From NCBI RefSeq assembly GCF_001422405.1, contig NZ_LMMV01000026.1:66166-130165 (forward strand): DNA of 64,000 bases, written 5' to 3'. Below the pieces are notes generated by a model, which worked only from the letters and a program-made list of their open reading frames with translations, was not told the origin of the DNA and did not search any database. Each line of letters starts with the position of its first letter. The first letter of the stretch is position 1. Below are positions 44,137 through 61,188 of the stretch, one piece after another. Position numbers and translations under genes: made by a program. Source of the stretch: Pseudorhodoferax sp. Leaf267. Its GTDB lineage: Bacteria; Pseudomonadota; Gammaproteobacteria; Burkholderiales; Burkholderiaceae_C.

Positions 44137-44347
44137 CGGTCGTGACTTTCTGGGCTGGCTGGGCGCCAAACGCGGCGCGTGCGGGATTGTCGGTGCAGTC
44201 CGCATGGCCCCGCGCGCGGGCCGGATGCACGCCATCTGGGCGGTTTTGCACTTGATTGGTGCGCCAAACAGCCAATTCCAGCCGAATTTTGGTTCAGCAG
44301 GGGGTTTTTGCCGATGTCGACGCTGGCACGCTATCTGCAAGATGCAT

Positions 44348-44359
44348 TCTGTCGACAGA
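44348..44359. promoter_or_regulatory. Perfect 12-bp palindrome in front of the amine-catabolic operon
   Basis: TCTGTCGACAGA is a perfect palindrome with a TGTC-GACA core, which fits the y-GT-M/K-AC-r pattern of FadR-type GntR operators. It lies 52 bases before the GTG of the first operon gene in the 275-base gap shared with rbgA. The operon encodes a GntR/FCD protein at 54872, a candidate ligand for this site. Confidence 0.45.
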
Positions 44360-44411
44360 TGACAGAAACCAATTTCGAGGCCTGAGCGGCCCGGCCCAGG
44401 AGCAGAACCCC

Positions 44412-45227
44412 GTGACATCCACCCAACGAAGCACCCCCTTGCATGCGCTCGCCTCCACCGGCCCGGCCATGTCGGCCGCCGAGCGCCAGGTCCGTGAAGA
44501 CCTGGCCGCCGCCTACCGGCTGGTAGCGCTGTATGGCATGGACGACAGCATCTACACGCACATCTCGGCGCGCGTGCCCGGCACGGACGACCAGTTCCTG
44601 ATCAACCCCTTCGGCATGCTGTTTCGCGACATCACGGCCTCCTCGCTGGTCAAGATCGACCTGCAGGGCCGCCTCGTGGAGCCCAGCGCATGGGACGTGA
44701 ACCCCGCCGGCTTCACGATCCACAGCGCCGTGCACGCGGCCCGGCACGACGCCGTCTGCGTGCTGCACACCCACACCGTGGCCGGCGTGGCCGTGTCGTC
44801 GCTGGCCGGCGGCCTGGCGCCGTGCAACCAGTGGGCGCTGCAGTTCCACCAGCGCGTGGCCTACCACGACTACGAAGGCATCGCGCTGAACCGTGCCGAG
44901 CGCGAGCGCCTGGTGGCCGACCTGGGGCCCGAGCACCGCGCCATGATCCTGCGCAACCACGGCCTGGTGACGCTGGGCCGCAGCGTGGCCGAGGCCTTCA
45001 TCCTCATGCACAACCTGGAGCGCGCCTGCCGCGTGCAGGTCGCCGTGCAGAGCACGGGCCAGCCCACCTACCCCGTGCCCGAGGAGGTCTGCGAGCTCAC
45101 CGCGCAGCAATACGCCAGCGGCGACACCAACCGCCTCGCGTCCCAGCCGACCGACCCCTATGCCCGCGAATGGCGGGCGCTGCTGCAGCGGCTGGCACCT
45201 CCCACTACCGCCGCCTACCGCGACTGA
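44412..45227 (+). CDS. Class II aldolase/adducin-family protein
   Basis: A 271-residue protein with the class II aldolase fold. Zinc-ligand candidates are the two His in VLHTHTVAG and the later His in LRNHGLVTLG. ALYGMDDSIYTHISARVPG is the typical N-terminal region. Family members cleave sugar phosphates, or decarboxylate or deformylate related compounds. The start is GTG with AGGAG 9 bases before it. It is the first gene of the 14-gene co-directional cluster, 29 bases before the ABC substrate-binding gene. Confidence 0.88.
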   Translation: MTSTQRSTPLHALASTGPAMSAAERQVREDLAAAYRLVALYGMDDSIYTHISARVPGTDDQFLINPFGMLFRDITASSLVKIDLQGRLVEPSAWDVNPAGFTIHSAVHAARHDAVCVLHTHTVAGVAVSSLAGGLAPCNQWALQFHQRVAYHDYEGIALNRAERERLVADLGPEHRAMILRNHGLVTLGRSVAEAFILMHNLERACRVQVAVQSTGQPTYPVPEEVCELTAQQYASGDTNRLASQPTDPYAREWRALLQRLAPPTTAAYRD

Positions 45228-45256
45228 CCCCACCTCCCCCTGAAAGGACCGCCACG

Positions 45257-46819
45257 ATGCAACGCCGCCAACTGCTCCAAGCCAGCTCCGCCGCCCTCGG
45301 CCTGTCGATCGCCGGGGTGCCCCTGCACGCCCTGTCCCAGGCCAGGAAGGGCGTGGTCAACGTGCTGGTCCAGCCCGAGCCGCCCGGCCTGATGATGGGC
45401 ATCGTGCAGAACGGCCCCACGCAGCTGATCGCCGGCAACATCTACGAAGGCCTGCTGCGCTACAACGACAAGCTCGAGCCCCAGCCGCAGCTGGCCACGT
45501 CCTGGACCGTCAGCCCCGACGCCAGGACCTACGTCTTCAAGCTCAAGCCCAACGTGAAGTGGCACGACGGCAAGCCCTTCACCGCGGCCGACGTGGTATT
45601 CTCGTGCGACGTGTTCCTGCGCAAGACGCATGCGCGCTTTCGCGCCAGCCTGGAGCAGGTCGAGTCCATCAAGGCGCTGGACCCGCTCACCGTCGAGTTC
45701 AAGCTCAAGCAGCCCTTCGGCCCCTTCATGGGCATCTTCGAGAACGGCACCATGCCCATGGTGCCCAAGCACCTCTACGAAGGCACGGACTTCCTGACCA
45801 ACCCGGCCAACGCCACCCCCGTCGGCACCGGCCCGCTCAAGTTCAAGGAATGGGTCAAGGGCTCGTACATCCAGCTCGTGGCCAACGAGCAGTACCACGT
45901 GGCCGGCGCCGTCAGCGTGGAGAGCGTGTACTTCCACGTGATCCCCGACGCTGCCGCGCGTGCCGCGGCCTTCGAGTCGGGCAAGGTCGACATCGCGCCG
46001 GGCGGCACGGTCGAATACTTCGACGTCGGCCGCCTGGCCAAGCTGCCGGGCGCAGCCGTCACCACCAAGGGCTGGGAGTTCTTCGCGCCGCACAGCTGGC
46101 TGTGGCTCAACAACCGCACCAAGCCCATGGACAACGTGAAGTTCCGCCAGGCCGTGTGGACCGCCATCGACCGCGAGGCCATGGCCAAGATCGCCTGGTA
46201 CGGCTTCGCCAAGCCGGCCACCGGCCCCTTCAACAGCCACATCGCCTTCGCCAGCGATGCCGTCACCAAGTACCCGCGCGACCTGGCCAAGGCCAAGGCG
46301 CTGCTGGCCGAGTCCGGCTACAAGGGCGAGACGCTGCGCCTGTTGCCGCTGCCCTACGGCGAGTCCTGGCAGCGCCAGGCCGAGATCGTGCGCCAGAACC
46401 TCACGCAGGCCGGCATCAAGATCGAGATGGTGGCCACCGACGTGGCCGGCTGGAACCAGCGCTGCAACGAGTGGGACTTCGACCTGGCCTTCACCTACGT
46501 CTACCAGTACGGCGACCCGGCACTGGGCGTGGGCCGCAACTACACCAGCAGCAACATCGCCAAGGGCTCGCCGTTCAACAACGTGGCCGGCTACACCAAC
46601 CCCAAGATCGACGAGTTGTTCGCCGCCGGTGCCAAGGAGGGCGACCCGGCCAAGCGCAAGGCCATCTACCTGGAGGCGCAGAAGATCCTGGTCGACGAAG
46701 TGCCCGTGGCTTGGCTGCACGAGATCAACTTCCCCACGCTGTACCGCAACAAGATCCAGAACATCGTGAGCTCGGGCATCGGGCTGAACGACAGCCTGGG
46801 CCGCATCACGCTCGCCTGA
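45257..46819 (+). CDS. Peptide/opine-type ABC transporter substrate-binding protein
   Basis: A 520-residue periplasmic receptor of SBP family 5 (DppA/OppA). A twin-arginine-like signal (MQRRQLLQASSAALGLSIAG) is followed by DKLEPQPQLATSWTVSPDA and the family segment YVFKLKPNVKWHDGKPFTAADVVFS (quoted in parts: WHDGKPFTAADVV). It captures di- or oligopeptides, opines or peptide-like amines. Permease genes follow at 13 bases and beyond. The catabolic genes downstream suggest an N-acylated amine as cargo; this is inference. Confidence 0.93.
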   Translation: MQRRQLLQASSAALGLSIAGVPLHALSQARKGVVNVLVQPEPPGLMMGIVQNGPTQLIAGNIYEGLLRYNDKLEPQPQLATSWTVSPDARTYVFKLKPNVKWHDGKPFTAADVVFSCDVFLRKTHARFRASLEQVESIKALDPLTVEFKLKQPFGPFMGIFENGTMPMVPKHLYEGTDFLTNPANATPVGTGPLKFKEWVKGSYIQLVANEQYHVAGAVSVESVYFHVIPDAAARAAAFESGKVDIAPGGTVEYFDVGRLAKLPGAAVTTKGWEFFAPHSWLWLNNRTKPMDNVKFRQAVWTAIDREAMAKIAWYGFAKPATGPFNSHIAFASDAVTKYPRDLAKAKALLAESGYKGETLRLLPLPYGESWQRQAEIVRQNLTQAGIKIEMVATDVAGWNQRCNEWDFDLAFTYVYQYGDPALGVGRNYTSSNIAKGSPFNNVAGYTNPKIDELFAAGAKEGDPAKRKAIYLEAQKILVDEVPVAWLHEINFPTLYRNKIQNIVSSGIGLNDSLGRITLA

Positions 46820-46832
46820 GCGCAGAGCCGCC

Positions 46833-47807
46833 ATGAAACGTCTGCAGTTCATGTCCGTGCGCATCGTGCAAGGCCTGCTGGCCCTGCTGGTGATCGCCAC
46901 CGTCAACTTCATGCTGGTGCGCGCGGCGCCGGGCGACCCGGTGTCCATCATGGCGGGCGAGGCCGGCGCGTCCGACCCGCAGTTCGTGGCCCAGCTGCGC
47001 CAGCAATTCGGGCTGGACCAGCCGCTGCCCACGCAGCTGGCCAGCTACCTGCGCCATGTGGTCCAGCTCGACCTGGGCTTCTCGTACCGCCAGCAGCAGC
47101 CCGTGGTCGACCTGATCCTGGACCGCCTGCCCGCCACGCTGCTGCTGACCGGCACGGCCTTCGTGCTGTCGCTGGCCATGGGCATCGGCCTGGGCGCGCT
47201 GGCCAGCCGCCACGCCGGCAAATGGGTCGACAGCGCCATCACCGTGGTGGCGCTGGTGTTCTACGCCACGCCGCTGTATTGGCTGGCCATGATGGCCGTG
47301 CTGGTGTTCACGGTGCAGATGGACCTGCTGCCCGCCTTCGGCTTCTTCACCGTGGGCGCCGACCTGCAGGGCCTGGACCGCGTGCTCGACATCGCCAGGC
47401 ACCTGATCCTGCCGGCCGGCACGCTGGGCCTGTTCTACATGGCCGTCTACGCCCGCATGACGCGCGCCTCCATGCTCGAGGTCGCGCAGATGGACTTCGT
47501 GAAGACCGCGCGCGCCAAGGGCGTGCCGCCCGGCCGCATCCAGCGCAAGCACATCCTGCGCAACGCCCTGCTGCCCGTGGTCACGCTGGCCGGCATCCAG
47601 GCCGGCGGCATGATCGGCGGCGCCGTGCTGACCGAGACCGTGTTCGCCTGGCCCGGCATCGGCCGCCTGATGTTCGACGCGCTGCTGCAGCGCGACTACA
47701 ACCTGCTGCTCGGCTGCTTCCTGTTCACCGCGGCCATGGCCGTGCTGTTCAACCTGATCACCGATTTCGTCTACACGCTCGTCGATCCCCGCATCGAACT
47801 GACATGA
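46833..47807 (+). CDS. ABC transporter permease, DppB-like
   Basis: A 324-residue inner-membrane subunit with about six helices. The N-terminal ARAAPGDPVSIMAGE region and the cytoplasmic EAA loop (ARAKGVPPGRIQRKHILRNAL) that docks to the ATPase are visible. It pairs with the second permease 196 bases downstream. That gap contains a hairpin and repeat-like sequence but no complete gene. Confidence 0.95.
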   Translation: MKRLQFMSVRIVQGLLALLVIATVNFMLVRAAPGDPVSIMAGEAGASDPQFVAQLRQQFGLDQPLPTQLASYLRHVVQLDLGFSYRQQQPVVDLILDRLPATLLLTGTAFVLSLAMGIGLGALASRHAGKWVDSAITVVALVFYATPLYWLAMMAVLVFTVQMDLLPAFGFFTVGADLQGLDRVLDIARHLILPAGTLGLFYMAVYARMTRASMLEVAQMDFVKTARAKGVPPGRIQRKHILRNALLPVVTLAGIQAGGMIGGAVLTETVFAWPGIGRLMFDALLQRDYNLLLGCFLFTAAMAVLFNLITDFVYTLVDPRIELT

Positions 47808-47820
47808 GACCACCCCGTTT

Positions 47821-47846
47821 GGATGTCTCACTGCGTGTAGACATCC
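47821..47846 (+). repeat. Intercistronic hairpin between the two permease genes
   Basis: GGATGTCT (47821-47828) and AGACATCC (47839-47846) form a perfect 8-bp stem with a 10-base loop, 14 bases after the first permease stop. There is no T tract, so it is more likely an mRNA-stability element or part of a dispersed repeat than a terminator. The rest of the 196-base gap is GC-rich and resembles dispersed intergenic repeat sequence seen in this bacterial family. Confidence 0.55.
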
Positions 47847-48003
47847 CATCCCCCTCCAGGGGCGCCGCCAGCGGCCGGGCAGAGCCCGTTCCGCGGCGTC
47901 TGCTGACATGGCCTGCTCCGCGGCCTTCGGACTCTTTGGATGCGACCCGCTGTCGTGGGCTGCGGGTCGTGCGTCGCGCGATCAACGACTGATAGGAAGA
48001 TTC

Positions 48004-48842
48004 ATGAAAAGCAACTTCTGGCGGCGCTTTCGCCGCAACAAGGGTGCCGTGTTCGGCCTCATCGTGCTGCTGCTGGTGGCCCTGGTCACCGCGCTCGGCC
48101 CCTTCGTCGCGCAGCACAACCCCTGGGACATGGTCGGCATGCCGTTCGCGGCGCCGCTGGCCGAGCAGGGCATGCCGCTGGGCACCGACACCATGGGCCG
48201 CGACATCCTGTCGGGCATCGTGGCCGGAGCCCGCGTCTCGCTGCTGATCGGCGTGGTCTCCACTGTCGTGTCGCTGCTGATCGGCGTGGGCGTGGGCGCC
48301 ATCGCGGGCTACTTCGGCGGCTGGGTCGACGCCACGCTGATGCGCTTCACCGAGCTGTTCCAGGCCATCCCCAGCTTCGCGCTGGCCATCGTGCTCGTGG
48401 CCATCTTCCAGCCCTCGGTCGGCTCCATCGTCGTGGCCATCGCCATCGTCTCCTGGCCCCCCGTGGCGCGGCTGGTGCGCAGCGAGTTCCTCACGCTGCG
48501 CCAGCGCGACTTCGTGGCCGCCGCCGAGCTGGCCGGCCAGTCCACGCCGCGCATCATCCTCACGCAGATCCTGCCCAACGCGGCCTCGCCCATCGTGGTC
48601 ATGGCCTCGCTGATGATCGCCACCGCCATCCTGCTCGAATCCAGCCTGAGCTTCCTGGGCCTGGGCGACCCGAACCAGATGAGCTGGGGCTACATGGTCG
48701 GCTCGGCACGCTCGGTGCTGCGCCAGGCCTGGTGGATGGCCGTGTTCCCCGGCGTCGCCATCTTGCTGACCGTGCTGGCGCTGAACCTGGTGGGCGAAGG
48801 CCTGAACGACGGATTGAACGCACGCGCCGACGGGAGGGGCAA

Positions 48843-48846
<4 letters not shown>
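48004..48846 (+). CDS. ABC transporter permease, DppC-like
   Basis: A 280-residue membrane subunit. The N-terminal basic segment KSNFWRRFRRNKGAVFGL precedes the first helix. GTDTMGRDILSGIVAGARVS and the EAA loop (LRQRDFVAAAELAGQSTPRI) are typical of DppC/OppC. AGGAAG lies before the ATG at 48004; longer in-frame starts would run into the intergenic repeat region. It overlaps the ATPase gene by 4 bases. Confidence 0.95.
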
Positions 48847-50480
<1,634 letters not shown>

Positions 50481-50495
50481 GGCAGCTTCTTCGCT

Positions 50496-50587
50496 CCCTC
50501 TCCCTCTGGGAGAGGGCTGGGGTGAGGGCCAGCGGCGCTGAACGCATCGCCCTCTTTCCAATCACACCCTCACCCCCACCCTCTCCC
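50496..50587. repeat. REP-like palindromic intergenic element
   Basis: Nested inverted repeats fill the 130-base gap. CCCTCTCCC (50496-50504) pairs with GGGAGAGGG (50508-50516). A longer arm, 50508-50528, pairs with 50567-50587 at 19 of 21 positions around a 38-base loop. This GGGAGAGGG...GGGGTGAGGG composition is typical of dispersed extragenic palindromes in proteobacteria. Other copies would be needed to prove dispersal. Confidence 0.7.
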
Positions 50588-50610
50588 GCGCGCGGCAAAG
50601 GGGGCCAGGC

Positions 50611-51537
50611 ATGCCGCTGAACCACCACATCGCATTGGTCTCCGACCAGATCGCCATGGATTACCTGCTGCCGGCGTTTCGCGCGCGCTTCCCGCAGGCC
50701 AGGCTGCACCGCATCGACACCCAGGTGCAGGAGCTGGACGCCCTGGCCGACATCGACACCGTCGTCTGCTGGTCGCCCCCCACCGGCCTGCTGGCGCGCA
50801 TGCCGCGGCTGCGCCTGATCCAGTCCGTCGGCGCGGGCACCGACCACATCACGCGCGACCCGTCCTTGCCCGACGTGCCCATCCGCCGCATCGTCGACCC
50901 CGAGATGGCGGCGGGCATGAACGCCTACGTGGCCTGGGCCGTGGTGCACGGCCAGCGCCACATGGCCGGCTACATCGAGAGCCAGCGCCGCGCCGCGTGG
51001 GAGGAATCGCCTGTCGTGCCACCGGGCCGGCACCGCGTGGGCATCGCCGGGCTGGGCGTGCTGGGCCAGTCCGCCGCGCGCGCGCTCGCGGCCATCGGCT
51101 ACCAGGTGCGCGGCTGGAGCCGCAGCCCCAAGAGCGGCCTGCCCGAGGGCGTGGAGGCCTTCCATGGCGAGGCCGGGCGCGCCGCGTTCCTGGCCGGCTG
51201 CGACACGCTGGTGTGCCTGCTGCCGCTGACCGAGGACACCCACGGCATCCTCAACGCCGAGCTCTTCGCGCAGCTGCCGCGCGGCGCCCGGCTGGTGAAC
51301 GCCGGCCGCGGCGCCCAGCTGGTGCAAGATGACCTGCTGGCGGCGCTGGACAGCGGCCAGCTCGCCTCGGCCGTGCTGGACGCCTTCATCGAGGAGCCGC
51401 TGCCGCGCGATCATGCGTTCTGGCACCACCCGCGCATCACCGTCACGCCACACATCGCCACGCGCACCGGCCCCGAGGCCATCGCGCGGCAGACCGAAGA
51501 CCACCTGAAGCGCTTGTCCACACCGACACACGCCTGA
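50611..51537 (+). CDS. NAD(P)-dependent 2-hydroxyacid dehydrogenase (GhrA-like)
   Basis: A 308-residue D-2-hydroxyacid dehydrogenase. The nucleotide motif GIAGLGVLGQSAARAL lies near residue 144. The catalytic trio is visible as Arg in VNAGRGAQLV, Glu in DAFIEEPLP and His in TVTPHIATRT. It would interconvert a 2-oxo acid and its 2-hydroxy acid, as in glyoxylate/hydroxypyruvate reductases. It follows the REP-like hairpin and lies 16 bases before the aminotransferase gene. Confidence 0.92.
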   Translation: MPLNHHIALVSDQIAMDYLLPAFRARFPQARLHRIDTQVQELDALADIDTVVCWSPPTGLLARMPRLRLIQSVGAGTDHITRDPSLPDVPIRRIVDPEMAAGMNAYVAWAVVHGQRHMAGYIESQRRAAWEESPVVPPGRHRVGIAGLGVLGQSAARALAAIGYQVRGWSRSPKSGLPEGVEAFHGEAGRAAFLAGCDTLVCLLPLTEDTHGILNAELFAQLPRGARLVNAGRGAQLVQDDLLAALDSGQLASAVLDAFIEEPLPRDHAFWHHPRITVTPHIATRTGPEAIARQTEDHLKRLSTPTHA

Positions 51538-51553
51538 CACCAAGAGGAGCCCC

Positions 51554-52924
51554 ATGGCCAAAGACCTGAGCACCGGCGAGAAGGATGTCGCCACCCACCT
51601 GCATTCCTACACCAACCTGGCCACGCTGCCGCAGACGCCGCCGCTCGTGATCGTGGGGGGCGACGGCATCCACGTCGTCGACGAGCAGGGCAAGCGCTAC
51701 GTCGAGGCCATGTCCGGCCTGTGGTGCGCCTCGCTGGGCTTCTCGAACCAGCGCCTGGCCGCTGCCGGGGCCAAGGCCCTGCAGACGCTGCCCTACTACC
51801 ACACGTTCAACCAGCGCACCAACGTGGCCGTGGCCGACCTGGCCGAGAAGCTGCTCGCGCTGGCGCCCGTGCCCATGGCCCGCGTGTTCTTCGCCAACTC
51901 CGGTTCCGAGGCCAACGACAGCGCGGTGAAGATGGTCTGGTACTACCACAACGCCATTGGCAAGCCGGCCAAGAAGAAGATCATCGCGCGGCGCAACGCC
52001 TACCACGGCGTGACGGTGGCCGCCGCCAGCCTGGGCGGGCTGGACGGCAACCACCGCGACTTCGACCTGCCGATCGATCGCTTCCTGCACGTCGATTGCC
52101 CGCACCACTACCGCTACGCCGAGCCCGGCGAGAGCGAGCAGGACTTCTCCACGCGCCTGGCCCGGCAGCTGGAAGAGCGCATCCTGGCCGAGGGCCCCGA
52201 CACCGTGGCAGCCTTCATCGCCGAGCCCGTGATGGGCGCGGGCGGCGTGCTGGTGCCACCCGCCGGCTACTTTGAGAAGGTGCAGGCCGTGCTGCGCAAG
52301 TACGAGGTGCTGCTGATCGCCGACGAGGTGATCTGCGGCTTCGGCCGCACGGGCAACATGTTCGGCAGCACCACCTTCGGCCTGGCGCCCGACATCCTGT
52401 GCTGCGCCAAGGCGCTGTCATCGGGCTACGTGCCGATCTCGGCCGTGATGGTCAACGACAAGGTGCACCGCGCCATCGCCGCCAACAGCGGCAAGATCGG
52501 CAGCTTCGGCCATGGCTACACCTACTCGGGCCACCCCGTGGCCTGCGCCGTGGCGCTGGAGACGCTGCAGGTCTACGAGGACGAGCAGATCGTCGCGCAC
52601 GTGCGCGCCCTGGCGCCTGCGTTCCAGGCCGGCCTGCAGTCCTTCGCCGACCGCAAATGGGTCGGCAACGTGCGCGGCGTGGGCCTGATAGGCGCCATCG
52701 AGCTCATGGCCGACAAGGCCCGGCGCGCGCCCTTCGCGGCCAGCCACAAGGCCGGCTACAGCTTCGCCGCGCTGGCGCTGCAGGAGGGCCTGATCGTGCG
52801 TGCCATGGGCGACACCATCGGCCTGTGCCCGCCGCTGATCATCACCGCCGCCGAGCTCGACGACCTGTTCGCGCGCCTCACACGCGCCATGGACCGCTTC
52901 GAAGCCGAGCTGAGCCAGAACTAA
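51554..52924 (+). CDS. Class III (omega) aminotransferase
   Basis: A 456-residue PLP enzyme. The cofactor-binding Asp is D257 in LLIADEVICGFGRTG and the Schiff-base Lys is K286 in DILCCAKALSSGYVP. FFANSGSEANDSAVKMVWYY is the phosphate-binding region. It is most like amine:pyruvate or putrescine-type omega-aminotransferases, giving an aldehyde from a primary amine. The gene sits 11 bases before the first HDAC-like amidohydrolase gene, so it could act on the deacylated amine. Confidence 0.93.
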   Translation: MAKDLSTGEKDVATHLHSYTNLATLPQTPPLVIVGGDGIHVVDEQGKRYVEAMSGLWCASLGFSNQRLAAAGAKALQTLPYYHTFNQRTNVAVADLAEKLLALAPVPMARVFFANSGSEANDSAVKMVWYYHNAIGKPAKKKIIARRNAYHGVTVAAASLGGLDGNHRDFDLPIDRFLHVDCPHHYRYAEPGESEQDFSTRLARQLEERILAEGPDTVAAFIAEPVMGAGGVLVPPAGYFEKVQAVLRKYEVLLIADEVICGFGRTGNMFGSTTFGLAPDILCCAKALSSGYVPISAVMVNDKVHRAIAANSGKIGSFGHGYTYSGHPVACAVALETLQVYEDEQIVAHVRALAPAFQAGLQSFADRKWVGNVRGVGLIGAIELMADKARRAPFAASHKAGYSFAALALQEGLIVRAMGDTIGLCPPLIITAAELDDLFARLTRAMDRFEAELSQN

Positions 52925-52935
52925 GGGGACACGCC

Positions 52936-53973
52936 ATGCAAGCCTTCTTCTCCGACGACCAGCTGCTGCACGACCCACAGCAGTACATGCGCGTGGGCCG
53001 CATCTGCAAGCCCGCCGACCTGCCCACGCGGGCCGAGGCCTTGCAGGCCACGCTGGCCCAGCGCGGCATCAGCGTCAGCGTGCCGCGCGAGGCAGGCCGC
53101 CAGGCGCTGGAGCTGGTGCACAGCACCGACTACCTGGACTACCTGGAGACGGCGTACGCGCGCTGGCAGAAGATCGAGTCGTTCGGGCTGGAGCCCGGCA
53201 TCGAGGTGCTGCCCAACATGTCGCCGCACGGCGTGCGCCAGGGGCCCTGCCCCTCGCCCGCGGTGCTGGCGCAGACGGGCTGGTACGTCGGCGACCTGTC
53301 CTGCCCGATCGGGCCGAACACCTGGCGCTCGGTGTTGCGCTCGGCGCATGCCGCGCTGGCCGCGGCCGAGACCGTGCGCGATGCCGGCGGCGTGGCCTAC
53401 GCGCTGTGCCGGCCCTCGGGCCACCATGCGCAGCGCGCACGCGCCGCGGGCTTTTGCTACGTGAACAACAGCGCGATCGCCGCCGCCACGCTGCGCCAGG
53501 CGCATGGGCGCGTGGCGGTGCTCGACATCGACGCCCACCACGGCGACGGCACGCAGCAGATCTTCTACGAGCGCGCCGACGTGCTCACCATCTCCACGCA
53601 CGCCGACCCGGCCAACTACTACCCCTGGTACACGGGCTACGCGCACGAGCGCGGCGCGGGCGAGGGCGAAGGCTGCAACCTGAACCTGCCACTGGCCCAC
53701 GGCAGCGGCACGGCCGCGTTCGCGCTGGCGCTGGACCAGGCCATGGCCGCCATCGAGCGCTTCGGGCCGCAGGCCCTGGTGCTGCCGCTGGGCTTCGACA
53801 CCTACAAGGACGACCCGATCAGCGTGCTGCAGTTCGACATGGACAGCTTCCGCCTGGCCGGCGCGCGCGTGCGCGCGCTGGGCGTGCCCACCGTGGTGGT
53901 GCAGGAGGGCGGCTACATGGTCGGGGCCATCGGCGCCGCGCTGGATGCGTTCCTGGAGGGCCTGCAGGCGTGA
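52936..53973 (+). CDS. HDAC-like/acetylpolyamine amidohydrolase (copy 1)
   Basis: A 345-residue arginase-fold zinc hydrolase. The His dyad is H163-H164 in RPSGHHAQRA. Zinc ligands are D199 and H201 in LDIDAHHGDGT and D288 in LGFDTYKDDP. The transition-state Tyr is Y327 in QEGGYMVG. These match, with near-constant offsets, the known catalytic residues of Mycoplana acetylpolyamine amidohydrolase. It would remove an acyl group from an N-acylated amine. Start 52936 has an AAGGGG site; the stop overlaps the EamA gene. Confidence 0.92.
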   Translation: MQAFFSDDQLLHDPQQYMRVGRICKPADLPTRAEALQATLAQRGISVSVPREAGRQALELVHSTDYLDYLETAYARWQKIESFGLEPGIEVLPNMSPHGVRQGPCPSPAVLAQTGWYVGDLSCPIGPNTWRSVLRSAHAALAAAETVRDAGGVAYALCRPSGHHAQRARAAGFCYVNNSAIAAATLRQAHGRVAVLDIDAHHGDGTQQIFYERADVLTISTHADPANYYPWYTGYAHERGAGEGEGCNLNLPLAHGSGTAAFALALDQAMAAIERFGPQALVLPLGFDTYKDDPISVLQFDMDSFRLAGARVRALGVPTVVVQEGGYMVGAIGAALDAFLEGLQA

Positions 53974-54875
53974 CCCTGGCGCGTGCGCTGCCCGGCCCTG
54001 CCGTGCGCGACGGGGCGGCCACCGGCATCGCGTTGTTCCTGTGCGCGCTGGTGTTGTTCGCGGCCTACGACGCCTTCGCCAAGCAGATGGTGGCCCGCCA
54101 TGCGCCGGCCGTGGTCAACCTGGGCCGCTACACCGCCATCGGCGTGCTGGCCTTCGTGCTGCTGCTGCGCCACGGCGACCTGCGCCTGTGGCGCCAGCCG
54201 CACCAGAAGCTGCTCACCGCGCGCAGCGTGGCGCTGGCTGTCGTGGCCACCTGCTTCATGACGGCGCTGGTCACCATGCCGCTGGCCGAGGCCACGGCCA
54301 TCTACTTCACGGCGCCGCTGATCATGGTGGCGCTGTCGCCCTGGCTGCTGGGCGAGCGCGTGGGCCGCGCGCAATGGACGGCCGTGCTGCTGGGCTTCGC
54401 CGGCATGCTGTGCATCGTGCGGCCCGGCGGCAGCCTGCCGCTGGCGGGCACGCTGCTGATGGCGGTCTCGGCCGTCTGCTATGCGCTGTTCCAGGTGCTC
54501 ACGCGCCGGCTGTCCGGCCTGGTGCCGGCGCCCGTGCAGTTCGCCCACATGGCGCTGGCCTGCCTGATCGTCACCAACATCCCCGTGCTGTTCATGCCGC
54601 ACATCACCTTGCCGCCCTGGCCCGAGATGGCACTGCTGATCGCCGGCGGCGCCGTGAGCGGCAGCGCCCAGCTGCTGTTGCTGGCCGCGTTCCGCCGTGT
54701 CGGCGCGGCCACGCTGGCGCCGCTCAACTACGTGCAGCTGCTGCTGGCGGTGCTGATCAGCACGCTATGGTTCCAGCGCCCGCCCGATGCGATGGCATTG
54801 GCCGGCATGGCGCTGATCGCCGTGGCCGGCGTGTACCTGGCGCGTGCCCCGAGAGACAAAGGAAAGACACCATGA
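53970..54875 (+). CDS. EamA/DMT-superfamily transporter
   Basis: A 301-residue membrane protein with ten predicted helices in two EamA repeats (about 15-145 and 155-290). The motif AEATAIYFTAPLIMVALSPWLLGE (seen in parts, for example AEATAIYFTAPL) ends the first repeat, and LAPLNYVQLLLAVL the second. GTG start overlapping the previous stop (GTGA). It may export a pathway by-product or import substrate; direction is not predictable. It is tightly coupled to the GntR gene by ATGA. Confidence 0.9.
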   Translation: MTLARALPGPAVRDGAATGIALFLCALVLFAAYDAFAKQMVARHAPAVVNLGRYTAIGVLAFVLLLRHGDLRLWRQPHQKLLTARSVALAVVATCFMTALVTMPLAEATAIYFTAPLIMVALSPWLLGERVGRAQWTAVLLGFAGMLCIVRPGGSLPLAGTLLMAVSAVCYALFQVLTRRLSGLVPAPVQFAHMALACLIVTNIPVLFMPHITLPPWPEMALLIAGGAVSGSAQLLLLAAFRRVGAATLAPLNYVQLLLAVLISTLWFQRPPDAMALAGMALIAVAGVYLARAPRDKGKTP

Positions 54876-55561
54876 TCACCAGCCGCGCGGAAGCCGCGCC
54901 CGCCCCCGCCTTCTCCTCGATCCAGGTGCCCGACCTGGTCGGCGTGGTCGAGGCGCAGTTGCAGCAGGCCATCCTGGCGGGCCGCATCGCGCCGGGCGAG
55001 CGCATCGTCGAGGCCGAACTCGCGCGCCAGATGGGTGTGAGCCGCGCCCCCGTGCGCGAGGCCGCGCGCCGGCTCGAAAGCCTGGGCCTGCTGGTGTCGC
55101 GCCCGCGCCATGGCTTTGCCGTGCGCACGGTCTCGGCCAAGCAGGTGAACGACCTGTACGAGGTGCGCATCCAGCTCGAACTGCTGGGCGCCGCGCTGGC
55201 CTGCCAGCACGCCAGCGACGCCGAGCTGGCCGCGCTCGATGCGCGCGTGGACGATATGGTGGCGCGCGCCGAGACGCTGGCCACGGCCGAGCGCGTGGCG
55301 CTGGACCTGGACTTCCACCTGGCCATCAGCGCGCTGTCGGGCAACGACTACCTGCACCGCCTGTTCGACAACATGCAGACCGAGGTGCGCATGTTCCTCG
55401 CGCTCAGCGAGGACAGCTATGGCGACCTCAAGCTGCTGGCCGAGACCCACCGGCCGATCGCCCATGCCCTGGCGCGGCGCGACGTGGCCGCGGTGCAGCA
55501 CGCGCTGCGCTTTCATCTCGAAGACGCCAAGGCCCACGCCTGCGGCCTGTTCAAACCATGA
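54872..55561 (+). CDS. GntR-family regulator with FCD domain
   Basis: A 229-residue regulator. The winged helix-turn-helix is about 20-90 (VVEAQLQQAILAGRIAPGER; MGVSRAPVREAARRLESLG). The all-helical FCD domain has metal/ligand residues such as the Asp in DLDFHLAISALSGN and His in ETHRPIAHAL. It lies inside the catabolic cluster, overlapping genes on both sides by 4 bases, and is the likely local repressor. The palindrome at 44348-44359 is a candidate target. Confidence 0.92.
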   Translation: MITSRAEAAPAPAFSSIQVPDLVGVVEAQLQQAILAGRIAPGERIVEAELARQMGVSRAPVREAARRLESLGLLVSRPRHGFAVRTVSAKQVNDLYEVRIQLELLGAALACQHASDAELAALDARVDDMVARAETLATAERVALDLDFHLAISALSGNDYLHRLFDNMQTEVRMFLALSEDSYGDLKLLAETHRPIAHALARRDVAAVQHALRFHLEDAKAHACGLFKP

Positions 55562-56253
55562 CCCCTGTCGCCAAGGTCGCCATGGTCAGCGGCGGTAACC
55601 GCGGCATCGGCCTGGCAATAGCTCGCGAACTGCTGGCGCACGGCTGGCGCGTGAGCCTGGGCGCGCGCAGCGGCGCGGTGGACATCGCCGACGGGCGGCT
55701 GCGCGTCTACCGCTTCGACGCCGAAGACAAACAGAGCGAGACCGACTGGGTGGCCGGCACCGTGCGCGACTTCGGCGGCATCGACGCGCTGGTGCACAAC
55801 GCCGGCACGCTCAGCACGCGCTCGGTCATCGAGGCGGACGACGACGAGGTCGACCGCCTGCTGGAAGTCAACGTGAAGTCGCCGCTGCGCCTCACGCGCA
55901 AGGCCTGGCCGCATCTGCTGGCGGCGCGCGAAGGCAAGGTGCTGGTCATGGCCTCGCTCGCAGCCAAGCGCGTGCGCACGGCCGACGCCTCGCTCTATGC
56001 GCTGAGCAAGGCCGCCGTGCTGTCGCTGGCGCACGGCATCCGCCACTGCGGGGCCGAGGCGCGCGTGCGCTGCACGGCGCTGTGCCCCGGCTTCGTGGCC
56101 ACCGACATGGCGGCCTGGCTGCCCGAGGAGCAGCGCCGGCAGGCCACCCGGCCCGAGGACATCGCCCGCATCGCCCGCACCGTGCTCGAACTCCCCGCGT
56201 CGGCCAGCGTGGCCGAGATCCCCATCAGCTGGACCGTCGAACCTCAGTATTGA
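55558..56253 (+). CDS. Short-chain dehydrogenase/reductase
   Basis: A 231-residue SDR. The cofactor motif is VSGGNRGIGLAIA (classical TGxxxGxG type with Ser-Gly), NAG appears in LVHNAGTLST, and the active-site Y-x3-K is in SLYALSKAAV. The Ser is in VMASLAAKRV. It would oxidise or reduce an alcohol/aldehyde or keto intermediate of the pathway. It overlaps the GntR gene by 4 bases; the second HDAC-like gene follows after 10. Confidence 0.9.
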   Translation: MTPVAKVAMVSGGNRGIGLAIARELLAHGWRVSLGARSGAVDIADGRLRVYRFDAEDKQSETDWVAGTVRDFGGIDALVHNAGTLSTRSVIEADDDEVDRLLEVNVKSPLRLTRKAWPHLLAAREGKVLVMASLAAKRVRTADASLYALSKAAVLSLAHGIRHCGAEARVRCTALCPGFVATDMAAWLPEEQRRQATRPEDIARIARTVLELPASASVAEIPISWTVEPQY

Positions 56254-56263
56254 AAGCGCCCCC

Positions 56264-57292
56264 ATGAAAGTCATCTACAGCGACCAGCACGTCGGCCACG
56301 ACCCGCAGCAGTTCATCGTGCGCGGCCGCATGAAGCGCAGCAACGAGCAGCCCGAGCGCGGCACGCTGCTGCTGAACGCGGCGCGCGCCCAGGGCCACGA
56401 GATCGTCTCGCCCGAGGACCACGGCCCCGGCCCGCGCGCGGCCATCCACACGCCGCAGTACCTGCGCTTCCTGGAGACGGTGTGGGAGCGCTGGCAGCAG
56501 CTGGACGGCGCGTCCGAGGAGGTGATGCCCAACGTCCATCCCTTCCCCGGCCAGCCCTTCACCTACCCCGACAGCCTGGTCGGGCAGGCCGGCTACCACA
56601 TGGGCGACATGGCCTGCGCCATCGGCCGCCACACCTGGCATGCCGCGACCTGGTCGGCCCATGTCGCAACGCACGCGGCCCAGCTGGTGCTGGACGGCGA
56701 GCGCGCGGCCTACGCGCTGTGCCGCCCGCCCGGCCACCACGCCTATGCCGACCGCGCCAACGGCTTCACCTACCTGAACAACGCCGCCATCGCCGCCCAG
56801 CACCTGCGCCAGCGGCACGCGCGCGTGGCCATCCTGGACATCGACGTGCACCATGGCAATGGCACGCAGGGCATCTTCTGGCGCCGCAAGGACGTGCTGA
56901 CCATCTCGCTGCACGGCGACCCGCATTTCTGCACGCCCTTCTTCACGGGCCATGCGCACGAGATGGGCGAGGGCGAAGGCCTGGGCTACAACCTGAACCT
57001 GCCGCTGGCGCGCGGCACCGAGGACGAGGGCTTCCTCACCGCGTTGGCGACGGCGAACGCCACCATCCGCGCCTTCGCCCCCGGCGCGCTGGTCGTGGCC
57101 CTGGGCCTGGACGCACACGAGAACGACCCCTACCAGGCGCTGGCCGTCAGCACGCCGGGCTTTGCGCGCATCCTGGGCGAGATCGCGCGGCTGGGCCTGC
57201 CGACCGTGCTGGTGCAGGAGGGCGGCTACCTGTCGCAAGACCTGGGGCCGAACCTGGCCAGCGCGCTGGGCGGCTTCGAGAAGGCGGCCTGA
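56264..57292 (+). CDS. HDAC-like/acetylpolyamine amidohydrolase (copy 2)
   Basis: A 342-residue paralogue of the gene at 52936, clearly diverged from it. The catalytic set is complete: H158-H159 in RPPGHHAYAD, zinc ligands D194 and H196 in LDIDVHHGNGT, D283 in GLDAHENDP, and Y322 in QEGGYLSQ. These positions are almost the same as in Mycoplana acetylpolyamine amidohydrolase as I recall them. The first 60 residues and the loops differ from copy 1, suggesting a different acyl-amine preference. The kinase gene starts 2 bases later. Confidence 0.93.
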   Translation: MKVIYSDQHVGHDPQQFIVRGRMKRSNEQPERGTLLLNAARAQGHEIVSPEDHGPGPRAAIHTPQYLRFLETVWERWQQLDGASEEVMPNVHPFPGQPFTYPDSLVGQAGYHMGDMACAIGRHTWHAATWSAHVATHAAQLVLDGERAAYALCRPPGHHAYADRANGFTYLNNAAIAAQHLRQRHARVAILDIDVHHGNGTQGIFWRRKDVLTISLHGDPHFCTPFFTGHAHEMGEGEGLGYNLNLPLARGTEDEGFLTALATANATIRAFAPGALVVALGLDAHENDPYQALAVSTPGFARILGEIARLGLPTVLVQEGGYLSQDLGPNLASALGGFEKAA

Positions 57293-57294
57293 GC

Positions 57295-58386
57295 ATGGAC
57301 GACCTGGACGCCGCCATCCGCGCAGCCCTGCCCGAGGCGGCCGTGCTGACCGCGCCGCCCGCGCCCGTGGCCATCGACTGGGCAGCCGCAGCGCTGCAGC
57401 GCCTGTATGGCCTGACGGGCCGGCTCGAGCCGCTCACGGGCGAGCGCGACGCCAACTTCCTGCTGCAGCCTGCCGGTGGCGGCGCGCGCTGCATGCTCAA
57501 GCTCTCGCACCCCGACGAAGACCCGCTGGTCGCGGACTTCCAGACCCAGGCGCTGCTGCATGTCGCGCGCAGCGACGCCACGCTGCCCGTGCAGCGCCTG
57601 CTGCCCGACCGGCACGGCGCGCCCTCGGTGCAGATCGAGGATGCCGAGGGCCGCACGCGCGTGGCCCGCGTGTTCAGCTACCTCGAAGGCCTGCCCATGC
57701 CGCAGGCGCCGCGCTCGACCGCGCAGCGCCGCAGCGTGGCCCGCATGCTGGCGCGGCTCGACGGCGCGCTGGCCGGCCTGGAGCACCCGGCCGCCGCGCG
57801 CGAGCTGCCCTGGGACATCCAGCGCGCCGACCGCGTGCGCCCGCTGCTCGTGCACGTGGCCGACCCGGCGCGCCGCGCGCTGGCCGAGGCCGCGCTCGAC
57901 GGCTTCGCGCGGCGCACCAGGCCCATGCTCGCGGGGCTGCGCCGCCAGGCCATCCACAACGACTTCAACCTCTACAACCTGCTGGTCGACCCCGCCGAGC
58001 CGGCGTGCGTGGCCGGCATCCTGGACTTCGGCGACATGGTGCACGCACCGCTCGTGGACGACCTGGCCGTCGCCGCCTCCTACCACCTCGACGCGCAGGG
58101 CGACGCACTGGCCACCATCGCCCGCTTCGCAGCCGACTACCACGCGGTGGCGCCCTTGACGCAGGCCGAGACCTTCGCCCTGCTCGACCTGGTGCGCGCC
58201 CGCCTGGCGATGGTGGTCGCCATCAGCGGCTGGCGCGCCGCGCGCCAACCGGGCAATGCCGACTACCTGATGCGCAACAACGCCGTCTCCTGGGCGCGGC
58301 TGCAGGCCTGCGCCGCCCTCACGCCCGAGCAGGTGCAGGACGCCATCCACGCCGCCTGCCGCACACCGGAGCCCCTCGATGCCTGA
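57295..58386 (+). CDS. Phosphotransferase, hydroxylysine-kinase/APH-like
   Basis: A 363-residue kinase of the aminoglycoside phosphotransferase superfamily. The catalytic loop is H221-N-D223-F-N in AIHNDFNLYNLLVD and the metal Asp is D244 in GILDFGDMVHAP. The N-lobe Lys is in CMLKLSHPDE. The DFGDMVHAPLVDDLAVA stretch is typical of hydroxylysine-kinase-like proteins that pair with AGXT2L phospholyases. It overlaps such a phospholyase-like gene by 8 bases, so it likely phosphorylates an amino alcohol rather than an antibiotic. Confidence 0.87.
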   Translation: MDDLDAAIRAALPEAAVLTAPPAPVAIDWAAAALQRLYGLTGRLEPLTGERDANFLLQPAGGGARCMLKLSHPDEDPLVADFQTQALLHVARSDATLPVQRLLPDRHGAPSVQIEDAEGRTRVARVFSYLEGLPMPQAPRSTAQRRSVARMLARLDGALAGLEHPAAARELPWDIQRADRVRPLLVHVADPARRALAEAALDGFARRTRPMLAGLRRQAIHNDFNLYNLLVDPAEPACVAGILDFGDMVHAPLVDDLAVAASYHLDAQGDALATIARFAADYHAVAPLTQAETFALLDLVRARLAMVVAISGWRAARQPGNADYLMRNNAVSWARLQACAALTPEQVQDAIHAACRTPEPLDA

Positions 58387-59647
58387 CACCGCCGACCTCC
58401 TGGCCCGCCGCGCCCGCCTGCTGGGCCCGGCCTACCGGCTGTTCTACGACGAGCCCTTCCACCCCGTGCGCGGCGAGGGCGTGTGGCTCTTCGACGCAGC
58501 CGGCACGCCCTGGCTGGACGCCTACAACAACGTGGTGCCGCTGGGCCATGCCCGGCCCGAGGTGGTCCAGGCCATTGCGCGCCAGGCGGCCGTGCTCAAC
58601 ACGCACACGCGCTATCTGCACGACGGCATCCTCGACTACGCCGAGCGGCTGCTGGCCACCATGCCGGCCGCGCTCGGCCATGCCACCTTCACCTGCACGG
58701 GCAGCGAGGCCAACGACCTGGCCATGCGCATCGCCACCGCGCACACGGGCGGCACCGGCCTCATCGTCACGCGCTTCGCCTACCACGGCGTGACCGCGGC
58801 CATCGCCTGCGCCTCGCCCTCGCTCGGGCAGTTCGTGCGCATCGGCGAGCACGTGCGCCTGGTGGACGCGCCCGCGGGCGGCGATGCCGAGGCCGGCCGC
58901 CGCTTCGCCGACGGCGTGCGCGCAGCCATCGCCGACCTGCAGGCCCATGGCCTGCAGCCCGCCGCGCTGCTGGTCGATACCGTGTTCTCCAGCGACGGCA
59001 TCTTCACCGGCCCGGCCGGCTTGCTGGGCGAGGCTGTGGACGCCATCCGCGCGGCCGGGGGCGTGTTCATCGCCGACGAGGTGCAGCCCGGCTTCGGCCG
59101 CACGGGCGAGGCCTTCTGGGGCTTTGCGCGCCATGGCGTGGTGCCCGACATCGTGACCCTGGGCAAGCCCATGGGCAACGGCCACCCGGTCGCCGGCCTG
59201 GCCGTGCGGCCCGAGGTGATGCAGGCCTTCGGCAAGGCGTGCCGCTACTTCAACACCTTCGGCGGCAACCCGGTCTCGATGGCGGCGGCCGCGGCCGTGC
59301 TCGACGTGATCCAGCAACACGACCTGCAGCGCAACGCCCTGCACGTGGGCGCCTACCTGCGCGAACGCCTGGCCGCGCTGGGCCAGCGCCACGCGCTGGT
59401 CGGCGAGGTGCGCGGGGCCGGCCTGTTCATCGGCGTGGAACTCGTCACCGACCGCGCGACGCGCGCGCCGGCCACGGCCCAGGCTGCCCAGGTGGTCAAC
59501 GGCCTGCGCCAGCGCCAGGTGCTGCTGAGCGCCACCGGCCCGCAGGCCCATGTGCTGAAGATCCGCCCGCCGCTGGTGTTCACGCGGGAACACGCCGACC
59601 TGCTGGTCGAGCGGCTGGACTCGGTGCTGGCCGGCCTGGCGGCGTGA
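58379..59647 (+). CDS. AGXT2L-like PLP enzyme (amino-alcohol phosphate phospholyase candidate)
   Basis: A 422-residue class III fold enzyme. The PLP Lys is K263 in LGKPMGNGHPVAG and the cofactor Asp D234 in IADEVQPGFGRTG. YNNVVPLGHARPEVV, LNTHTRYLHDGI and KPMGNGHP are features of the AGXT2L group, which degrades phosphoethanolamine or phosphohydroxylysine to an aldehyde, ammonia and phosphate. It is coupled to the kinase gene by an 8-base overlap, supporting a phosphorylate-then-eliminate route. It is the last gene of the cluster and convergent with dbpA. Confidence 0.88.
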   Translation: MPDTADLLARRARLLGPAYRLFYDEPFHPVRGEGVWLFDAAGTPWLDAYNNVVPLGHARPEVVQAIARQAAVLNTHTRYLHDGILDYAERLLATMPAALGHATFTCTGSEANDLAMRIATAHTGGTGLIVTRFAYHGVTAAIACASPSLGQFVRIGEHVRLVDAPAGGDAEAGRRFADGVRAAIADLQAHGLQPAALLVDTVFSSDGIFTGPAGLLGEAVDAIRAAGGVFIADEVQPGFGRTGEAFWGFARHGVVPDIVTLGKPMGNGHPVAGLAVRPEVMQAFGKACRYFNTFGGNPVSMAAAAAVLDVIQQHDLQRNALHVGAYLRERLAALGQRHALVGEVRGAGLFIGVELVTDRATRAPATAQAAQVVNGLRQRQVLLSATGPQAHVLKIRPPLVFTREHADLLVERLDSVLAGLAA

Positions 59648-61051: not shown

Positions 61052-61188
61052 GTGGCGATTGTCGGGGTCTGCCCCGCTGAACAGCGCGCACATTGCGGCG
61101 CAGAATCGCGAACTGGACGCGATGGCCGCCGTTGCGCGGCTTTTGCAGGCAGCAAGCCCTTGCAAGATGCTCCCCGAAAGGACACCGC

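What the first reader, a model, noticed from the sequence alone, without database searches (positions are those of the whole stretch)
44412..59647. Fourteen-gene candidate pathway for an N-acylated amine or amino alcohol
One strand carries a peptide-type ABC importer, two acetylpolyamine-amidohydrolase-like enzymes, an omega-aminotransferase, an APH/hydroxylysine-kinase-like kinase, an AGXT2L-like phospholyase, an SDR, a 2-hydroxyacid dehydrogenase, a class II aldolase, a transporter and a GntR regulator. Most gaps are under 30 bases or overlapping. I know of no described pathway combining deacylation, transamination and phosphorylation/phospho-elimination in this way. A hydroxylated polyamine, acetyl-hydroxylysine/hypusine-like compound or peptidic amine are candidate substrates.
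Basis: inference. Interest (0 to 1): 0.82.

Follow-up and report, generated by a model that had tools for sequence, protein, structure and literature searches.

The report
Conserved acyl-amine breakdown gene cluster
A block of fourteen neighbouring genes, kept together in dozens of related soil and plant bacteria, looks like one co-regulated route that imports an unidentified acylated amino compound, strips off its acyl group and breaks it down by adding and then eliminating a phosphate; the single enzymes are familiar kinds, but I found no description of this combination or of its food molecule.

Summary
In detail: fourteen + strand genes at 44412-59647, 11 of 13 junctions under 30 bp or overlapping. 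The cluster is conserved: importer, deacylase 2 and kinase orthologues fall in the same 8 of 200 family genomes, and 46 of 80 kinase loci carry deacylase 2. New evidence for one regulon: the palindrome CTGTCGACAG (44349-44358) precedes gene 1 in 14 of 14 distinct loci tested and occurs twice in the 6.5-Mb genome. Genes 13/14 form a kinase/phospho-lyase pair for a vicinal amino alcohol, adjacent in 80 of 80 loci. In that sample the importer comes with a deacylase in 49 of 49 loci; one importer relative elsewhere (G070) has none nearby. The polyamine label is weak: Glu106, the ammonium-binding residue of the M. ramosa enzyme, is missing in 85 of 85 orthologues, and relatives of deacylase 2 neighbour acyl-amino-acid enzymes. 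I favour an N-acylated hydroxy-amino acid (hydroxylysine-like or 4-amino-3-hydroxybutyrate-like); hypusine is chemically unlikely. The substrate is unproven. Transaminase, deacylase 1 and SDR are accessory. Nearest precedent: the aminopropanol (Aut/RMM) locus, which has shell proteins; none were found in this genome.

The parts
44349..44358 (.). Palindrome CTGTCGACAG, candidate operator of the cluster's GntR regulator
   Evidence: 1 copy in window (expected 0.02); upstream of gene 1 in all 15 rows tested, 14 distinct loci (7 of them Achromobacter/Schauerella); 2 copies in the 6.53-Mb genome (reversed-pattern control: 1); ten invariant columns in 13 rows.
44412..45227 (+). Gene 1: class II aldolase/adducin family protein (PRK07044 subfamily)
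   Evidence: 350 bits, cut-off 207; PF00596
45257..46819 (+). Gene 2: family 5 (peptide-type) solute-binding protein
   Evidence: (PF00496)
46833..47807 (+). Gene 3: ABC permease
   Evidence: 93% to an annotated ABC permease
48004..48846 (+). Gene 4: ABC permease
   Evidence: 93% to an annotated ABC permease
48843..50480 (+). Gene 5: fused double ABC ATPase with oligo_HPY
50611..51537 (+). Gene 6: 2-hydroxyacid dehydrogenase, GhrA-like (below the GhrA cut-off)
51554..52924 (+). Gene 7: omega-aminotransferase, PRK06105 subfamily; accessory
   Evidence: (715 bits, cut-off 517); no match at E<=1e-90 in 3 of 3 Achromobacter genomes tested
52936..53973 (+). Gene 8: deacylase 1 (H1), histone-deacetylase fold; accessory
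   Evidence: (PF00850)
53970..54875 (+). Gene 9: EamA/DMT transporter
   Evidence: PF00892
54872..55561 (+). Gene 10: GntR/FCD regulator
55558..56253 (+). Gene 11: SDR oxidoreductase; accessory
   Evidence: in 10 of 46 loci with H2
56264..57292 (+). Gene 12: deacylase 2 (H2), histone-deacetylase fold; core
57295..58386 (+). Gene 13: APH-fold small-molecule kinase; core
   Evidence: (PF01636)
58379..59647 (+). Gene 14: class III PLP phospho-lyase; core
   Evidence: beside the kinase in 80 of 80 loci

Best explanation
One GntR-controlled catabolic locus. The family 5 ABC importer brings in an N-acylated compound (inferred). Deacylase 2, helped in some species by deacylase 1 and by an ArgE/DapE or M20 deacylase, removes the acyl group and frees a primary amine next to a hydroxyl-bearing carbon (inferred from families and neighbours). 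The APH-fold kinase phosphorylates that hydroxyl; the class III phospho-lyase forms a PLP aldimine with the amine and eliminates phosphate and ammonia, leaving an aldehyde (mechanism inferred from the closest solved relatives; the gene pairing itself is shown). The aldehyde, or a keto acid, is then handled by the aldolase and the GhrA-like reductase in a way I cannot specify, and outside the cluster by general enzymes. The substrate class I think most likely is an N-acylated hydroxy-amino acid: one with -CH(OH)-CH2-NH-acyl and a carboxylate, such as N-acyl-5-hydroxylysine or N-acyl-4-amino-3-hydroxybutyrate. The aminotransferase, deacylase 1, SDR and the M20/ArgE deacylases of relatives are accessory: deacylase 1 belongs to a second module (M20, TPP keto-acid enzyme, aldehyde dehydrogenase, transaminase) that stands alone in other genomes and is partly merged into this locus in Comamonadaceae.
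For: Locus unity: palindrome in 14 of 14 distinct loci tested; binding protein (>=77% identity), H2 (>=81%) and kinase (>=60%) in the same 8 of 200 family genomes; order kept. Pairing: lyase directly downstream of the kinase in 80 of 80 loci; kinase catalytic residues invariant in 20 rows; lyase scores 385 and 362 bits to two solved phospho-lyases and 156 to the next chain. Import-deacylase link: importer orthologues in 49 of 80 loci, all 49 with a deacylase; 26 loci with neither. Acid rather than polyamine: H2 relatives beside transaminase + BKACE + GNAT, or beside a family 5 importer with ArgE/DapE or M20; position 106 is V, L or I in 85 of 85 orthologues, and 43 of 49 H2 rows have a basic RG[RK]xKR stretch in the N-terminal loop. 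Core versus accessory. Second module.
Against: No substrate was tested. PsApaH has His at position 106 and still deacetylates polyamines (PMC11532494, passages), so loss of Glu106 does not exclude them; deacylase 1 keeps the PIS motif of polyamine enzymes in 25 of 36 rows. Of 14 more distant deacylases left out of the 85, two do have Glu at 106 (L137, L126). An H2 relative (54%) lies in a Pot-type transporter cluster with a second deacylase and a related aminotransferase (G078), and a Pseudomonas locus puts an H2 relative (60%) and a PotD-like protein beside the kinase/lyase (L112); both favour an amine. Importer relatives (56-70%) in G070 have no deacylase in the 20-kb piece fetched (L125). 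Two metagenome contigs (L057, L065) have a close kinase and lyase but no cluster upstream. Genes 1 and 6, both core, are not explained. The carboxylate is inferred from neighbours only.
Confidence: 0.48

Rival explanations
1. Route for an acetylated hydroxy-diamine such as N-acetyl-2-hydroxyputrescine: deacetylation by either deacylase, transamination of one amine by gene 7, then kinase and phospho-lyase on the amino-alcohol end, towards succinate semialdehyde.
For: Both deacylases have acetylpolyamine amidohydrolases as best PDB matches; gene 7 is an omega-aminotransferase; kinase/lyase pairs without deacylase can stand beside Pot-type transporters (PotD-like in 9 of 26 loci with neither importer nor deacylase); 2-hydroxyputrescine is typical of betaproteobacteria (recalled).
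Against: Glu106 missing in 85 of 85 orthologues; importer is family 5, not Pot type; aminotransferase not core; no aldehyde dehydrogenase in the window cluster.
Confidence: 0.2
2. Route for a simple N-acyl amino alcohol, N-acyl-1-amino-2-propanol or N-acylethanolamine: deacylation, phosphorylation, elimination to propanal or acetaldehyde; the SDR interconverts aminoketone and amino alcohol.
For: The microcompartment aminopropanol kinase 6ef6 is the fourth Foldseek row for the kinase model and its only phmmer PDB match, E 0.004; the lyase is closest to a phospho-lyase and an ethanolamine-phosphate phospho-lyase; the Aut locus combines GntR, 1-amino-2-propanol dehydrogenase, aminotransferase and APH phosphotransferase (PMC6620236 passages).
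Against: Identity to 6ef6 is 20%, and homoserine and amicoumacin kinases rank higher; such small products need neither a transaminase nor ArgE/M20 deacylases; SDR is in only 10 of 46 loci.
Confidence: 0.15
3. Two independent pathways share one operon: an acyl-diamino-acid module (around genes 7 and 8) and an amino-alcohol module (genes 12-14).
For: In three genomes that also carry the H2 cluster, H1 lies in a separate family 5 importer/M20 cluster (TPP enzyme and aldehyde dehydrogenase in two of the three) with no kinase or lyase in 20 kb; gene 7 and H1 are present in only 34 and 25 of 46 H2 loci, three or four of which are cut by contig ends.
Against: Shared upstream palindrome and near-continuous overlap of genes 7-14; alphaproteobacterial loci join an H1-type deacylase to kinase and lyase.
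Confidence: 0.1
4. The kinase is a drug-modifying phosphotransferase and the locus serves detoxification.
For: PF01636 fold shared with aminoglycoside kinases.
Against: Paired with a phospho-lyase in 80 of 80 loci, inside an import operon.
Confidence: 0.02

Closest known systems
Aut/RMM (Aaum) 1-amino-2-propanol/aminoacetone microcompartment locus of Rhodococcus and Mycolicibacterium
   Same: [quoted passage not shown] kinase fold match 6ef6. That the dehydrogenase is an SDR and the aminotransferase a phospho-lyase is recalled; PMC6620236 proposes a transaminase
   Different: No shell proteins here (no PF00936 match in the genome, control rang in 2 of 14 genomes); family 5 importer and deacylases added; no aldehyde dehydrogenase in the cluster
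Class III phospho-lyases 5g4i and 6tor (sources, Arthrobacter and human, recalled); animal hydroxylysine pair HYKK/AGXT2L2 (recalled)
   Same: Gene 14 is closest to 5g4i and 6tor and has a kinase next door
   Different: Substrate unknown; no HYKK or AGXT2L2 sequence was on hand to compare
NCBIfam PRK06148 (1015-position fusion, 'hypothetical protein')
   Same: Genes 13 and 14 match its N- and C-terminal parts, positions 11-341 and 584-1010
   Different: Here two separate genes without the part between
Acetylpolyamine amidohydrolases (M. ramosa, P. aeruginosa)
   Same: Same fold and catalytic residues
   Different: Specificity residue Glu106 and, in H2, the PIS motif are not kept
Acetyl-protected beta-lysine / lysine degradation routes (recalled)
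   Same: Rhizobial relatives of H2 sit with transaminase, BKACE and GNAT
   Different: No BKACE or GNAT in the window cluster; kinase/lyase added

Membership tests
Acetylpolyamine amidohydrolase | PF00850 fold, Zn ligands D/H/D, HH pair, EGGY tyrosine | tested here: met
   present in both genes
Acetylpolyamine amidohydrolase | Glu106 (M. ramosa numbering) binding the substrate ammonium | tested here: not met
   V in 49 of 49 H2 rows; V, L or I in 36 of 36 H1 rows; PsApaH also lacks it, so not decisive
Acetylpolyamine amidohydrolase | RPPGHH and PIS motifs together | tested here: not met
   H2 has RPP but PY[QKR]; H1 has RPS, with PIS in 25 of 36
Acetylpolyamine amidohydrolase | Activity on acetylputrescine/acetylcadaverine | not testable with these tools
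   Needs enzyme assay
Class III phospho-lyase | Closer to solved phospho-lyases than to transaminases | tested here: met
   385 and 362 bits against 156 for the next chain
Class III phospho-lyase | PLP lysine and GSEAND stretch kept | tested here: met
   K263 and G108-D113 invariant in 16 rows (roles of the residues recalled)
Class III phospho-lyase | Phosphate release from an amino-alcohol phosphate | not testable with these tools
   Needs enzyme assay
APH-fold small-molecule kinase | PF01636 domain and catalytic residues | tested here: met
   H221, N222, D223, N228, D244-D247 invariant (roles recalled)
Hydroxylysine kinase (HYKK) | Orthology to HYKK | not tested
   No HYKK sequence was on hand
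Aut/RMM aminopropanol microcompartment | BMC shell proteins | tested here: not met
   no PF00936 match in the genome; control rang in 2 of 14 genomes
Aut/RMM aminopropanol microcompartment | Kinase of the aminopropanol kinase fold | tested here: inconclusive
   6ef6 rank 4, 20% identity; homoserine and amicoumacin kinases rank above

The most novel reading that the evidence does not exclude
An undescribed bacterial pathway in which a histone-deacetylase-fold enzyme specific for N-acyl hydroxy-amino acids feeds a kinase/phospho-lyase pair, giving proteobacteria, several of them leaf or root isolates by name, a shell-free counterpart of the aminopropanol pathway and of the animal hydroxylysine route for an acylated natural product not yet recognised as a nutrient.
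Probability: 0.4. Interest if true: 0.65.

Novelty: new variant of a known kind. Interest (0 to 1): 0.52.

Why it matters
It would give a function to two poorly understood groups at once: bacterial histone-deacetylase-fold enzymes now labelled as polyamine or histone deacetylases by default, and the widespread APH kinase/class III phospho-lyase pairs that annotation calls phosphotransferase and aminotransferase. The conserved candidate operator and the clean presence/absence pattern make the substrate directly testable by growth, induction and enzyme assay.

Tried and rejected
Hypusine: rejected on chemistry, its primary amine is not next to the hydroxyl carbon. Aminoglycoside resistance: disfavoured because the kinase is paired with a lyase in 80 of 80 loci. 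A transaminase-centred pathway: rejected as core because gene 7 has no match at E<=1e-90 in 3 of 3 Achromobacter genomes with the cluster. Paper searches for a described cluster listed none with this gene set; two searches returned mostly noise. ArgE/DapE was sought in the window's genome without a match, but that empty answer has no positive control. The window's genome has a 49% relative of the TPP enzyme and two BKACE genes, neither in the window; not followed. A promoter/terminator scan was uninformative. The second copy of the palindrome in the genome (L151) lies near genes that show no link to the cluster. SDR searches against PDB gave only general SDR matches for gene 11 and none of known amino-alcohol function for the type C SDR (its best match, 4x54, is unnamed beyond SDR).
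Full report
What is there. Fourteen + strand genes run from 44412 to 59647: class II aldolase, family 5 binding protein, two permeases, fused double ATPase, GhrA-like 2-hydroxyacid dehydrogenase, omega-aminotransferase, deacylase 1 (H1), EamA/DMT transporter, GntR/FCD regulator, SDR, deacylase 2 (H2), APH-fold kinase and class III phospho-lyase (families). Eleven of thirteen junctions are under 30 bp or overlap; the exceptions are 196 bp (genes 3/4) and 130 bp (genes 5/6). The window is G000:C26:66166-130165 of a 6.53-Mb genome.

Conservation. In 200 genomes of the family, the window's own among them, the kinase matched at E<=1e-40 in 11. Taking orthologues by identity, kinase >=60%, binding protein >=77% and H2 >=81% fall in the same 8 of 200. 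H1 >=61% is in these 8 plus G068, whose 4.6-kb contig carries aminotransferase-H1-M20-DMT-GntR and ends there; its only kinase matches are about 40% and elsewhere. Gene order is kept in those genomes where contigs allow and on a plasmid of a leaf isolate, with an extra M20 hydrolase. One metagenome copy (G150) looks decayed: no aminotransferase, and stop codons in the binding protein, H1 and kinase.

Wider survey. The lyase lies within 400 bp downstream on the same strand in 80 of 80. H2 orthologues (>=70%) are in 46 of 80, as a rule about 1 kb upstream of the kinase. Among those 46: GntR 44, GhrA-like 43, aminotransferase 34, H1 25, SDR 10, ArgE/DapE-like 9, M20 2, aldolase 7. Several of these loci are cut by contig ends, and they reach only 10 kb upstream, so the aldolase count is a coverage effect; the aldolase was found in each of six longer loci that reach it (L021, L030, L031, L033, L036, L130). 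With the thresholds, importer orthologues are in 49 of 80 loci and all 49 have a deacylase; 5 have a deacylase without the importer in view (3 at contig ends); 26 have neither. Against a strict link: G070 has importer relatives (56-70%) without a deacylase in the 20 kb fetched (L125), and L110 has a more distant family 5 importer (37-52%) and no deacylase. Two of the 26 (L057, L065, metagenome contigs) have a kinase at 61-63% with 6-10 kb upstream and no cluster. Alphaproteobacterial loci (Chelatococcus, Bosea, Microvirga, Pararhodobacter) join an H1-type deacylase, and in all but one the importer, to the kinase and lyase, with TPP enzyme, aldehyde dehydrogenase and/or M20. Pseudomonas, Aquitalea, Vogesella, Rahnella and rhizobial loci put the pair with an SDR, GntR or Pot-type proteins.

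Regulation. The palindrome CTGTCGACAG stands at 44349-44358. It is upstream of the aldolase in all 15 rows tested, 14 distinct loci, 7 of them Achromobacter or Schauerella; rows with too little upstream sequence (such as L054) were left out. In Achromobacter it lies in the divergent aldolase/GntR gap. Ten columns are invariant in 13 aligned rows. The window has one copy (0.02 expected) and the genome two, against one for the reversed pattern. Of 18 copies listed in all fetched DNA, 16 are these sites or repeats of them, with 2.7 expected by composition. That the GntR protein binds it is inference.

Enzymes. The lyase matches two solved phospho-lyases at 385 and 362 bits and the next chain at 156; the lysine of the LGKPMGNG stretch and GSEAND are invariant in 16 rows. 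The kinase keeps its conserved residues; its model (mean pLDDT 91.9) matches homoserine kinase 2ppq, amicoumacin kinases and the microcompartment aminopropanol kinase 6ef6. The deacylases keep Zn ligands and catalytic residues but not M. ramosa Glu106 in 85 of 85 orthologues (49 H2, 36 H1, after removal of identical rows); 14 more distant deacylases were set apart, and two of those have Glu. PMC11532494 (passages) names Glu106, PIS and RPP as features of polyamine enzymes and also says that PsApaH has His106 and is active, so this is evidence and not proof. PMC4784309 (passages) gives the activities of the P. aeruginosa enzymes. The tree puts H1 and H2 in separate well supported groups, with long-branch warnings for some outside rows.

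What deacylase 2 may do. Its relatives at 51-61% lie, in rhizobia, with a transaminase, a BKACE enzyme and a GNAT, and in Azospirillum, Qingshengfaniella and Haematobacter with a family 5 importer and ArgE/DapE or M20 deacylases, in Azospirillum also a TPP enzyme and BKACE. This reads like removal of an acetyl group from an acetamido acid (the acetyl-beta-lysine route is recalled, not looked up). Against it, G078 has an H2 relative (54%) in a Pot-type cluster, and Pseudomonas L112 joins an H2 relative, SDR, PotD-like protein and the kinase/lyase.

A second module. In two Achromobacter genomes and Cupriavidus basilensis KF708, all with the H2 cluster, H1 orthologues sit in a separate importer/M20/cupin cluster, with TPP enzyme and aldehyde dehydrogenase in two of the three, and no kinase or lyase in 20 kb. 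A Bosea genome has a second H1-type copy beside an acetolactate-synthase-like gene. Gene 7 has no match at E<=1e-90 in 3 of 3 Achromobacter genomes, and H1 (>=55%) is missing in 4 of 5 Cupriavidus, Ralstonia and Variovorax genomes tested.

Conclusion. The core is importer, aldolase, GhrA-like reductase, GntR, H2, kinase and lyase. The most likely chemistry is deacylation, phosphorylation and phospho-elimination of a vicinal amino alcohol; a carboxylate on the substrate is likely but unproven. Genes 1 and 6 are conserved and unexplained. The nearest precedent is the Aut/RMM locus (PMC6620236, PMC6787980, PMC8007038, passages), from which this differs by lacking shell proteins and by its import and deacylation part; PMC6620236 reads the Aut aminotransferase as a transaminase, and the phospho-lyase reading is mine from recall.

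Noticed in passing
window 50481-50610: The gap between genes 5 and 6 holds REP-like repeats (CCCTCTCCC and GGGAGAGGG stretches), seen by eye.
   Followed up: no
window about 43198-44418 and 59651-61165: The cluster is bracketed by minus-strand genes that read like a GTPase and a DEAD-box helicase (by motif only), so it may be an insertion between housekeeping genes.
   Followed up: no
L131, L132, L133, L134: Rhizobial transaminase-BKACE-GNAT-deacylase cluster that reads like an acetyl-beta-lysine type route.
   Followed up: partly
L146, L147, L148: Separate cluster of family 5 importer, M20, cupin and H1 deacylase (TPP enzyme and aldehyde dehydrogenase in L147 and L148) without kinase or lyase, in genomes that also carry the H2 cluster.
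   Followed up: partly
L112 512-12372: Pseudomonas locus with two glutamate-semialdehyde-aminomutase-like genes, PotD-like protein, SDR and an H2 relative beside the kinase/lyase pair.
   Followed up: partly
L141 7875-9230: Klebsiella plasmid carries a phospho-lyase-like gene beside an ABC importer with no annotated kinase next to it.
   Followed up: no
L035 (G150): Metagenome-assembled copy of the cluster lacks the aminotransferase and has stop codons in three genes.
   Followed up: partly
L125 10091-15153: G070 has an importer related to genes 2-5 (56-70%) with no deacylase in the 20 kb fetched; its neighbours were not identified.
   Followed up: no
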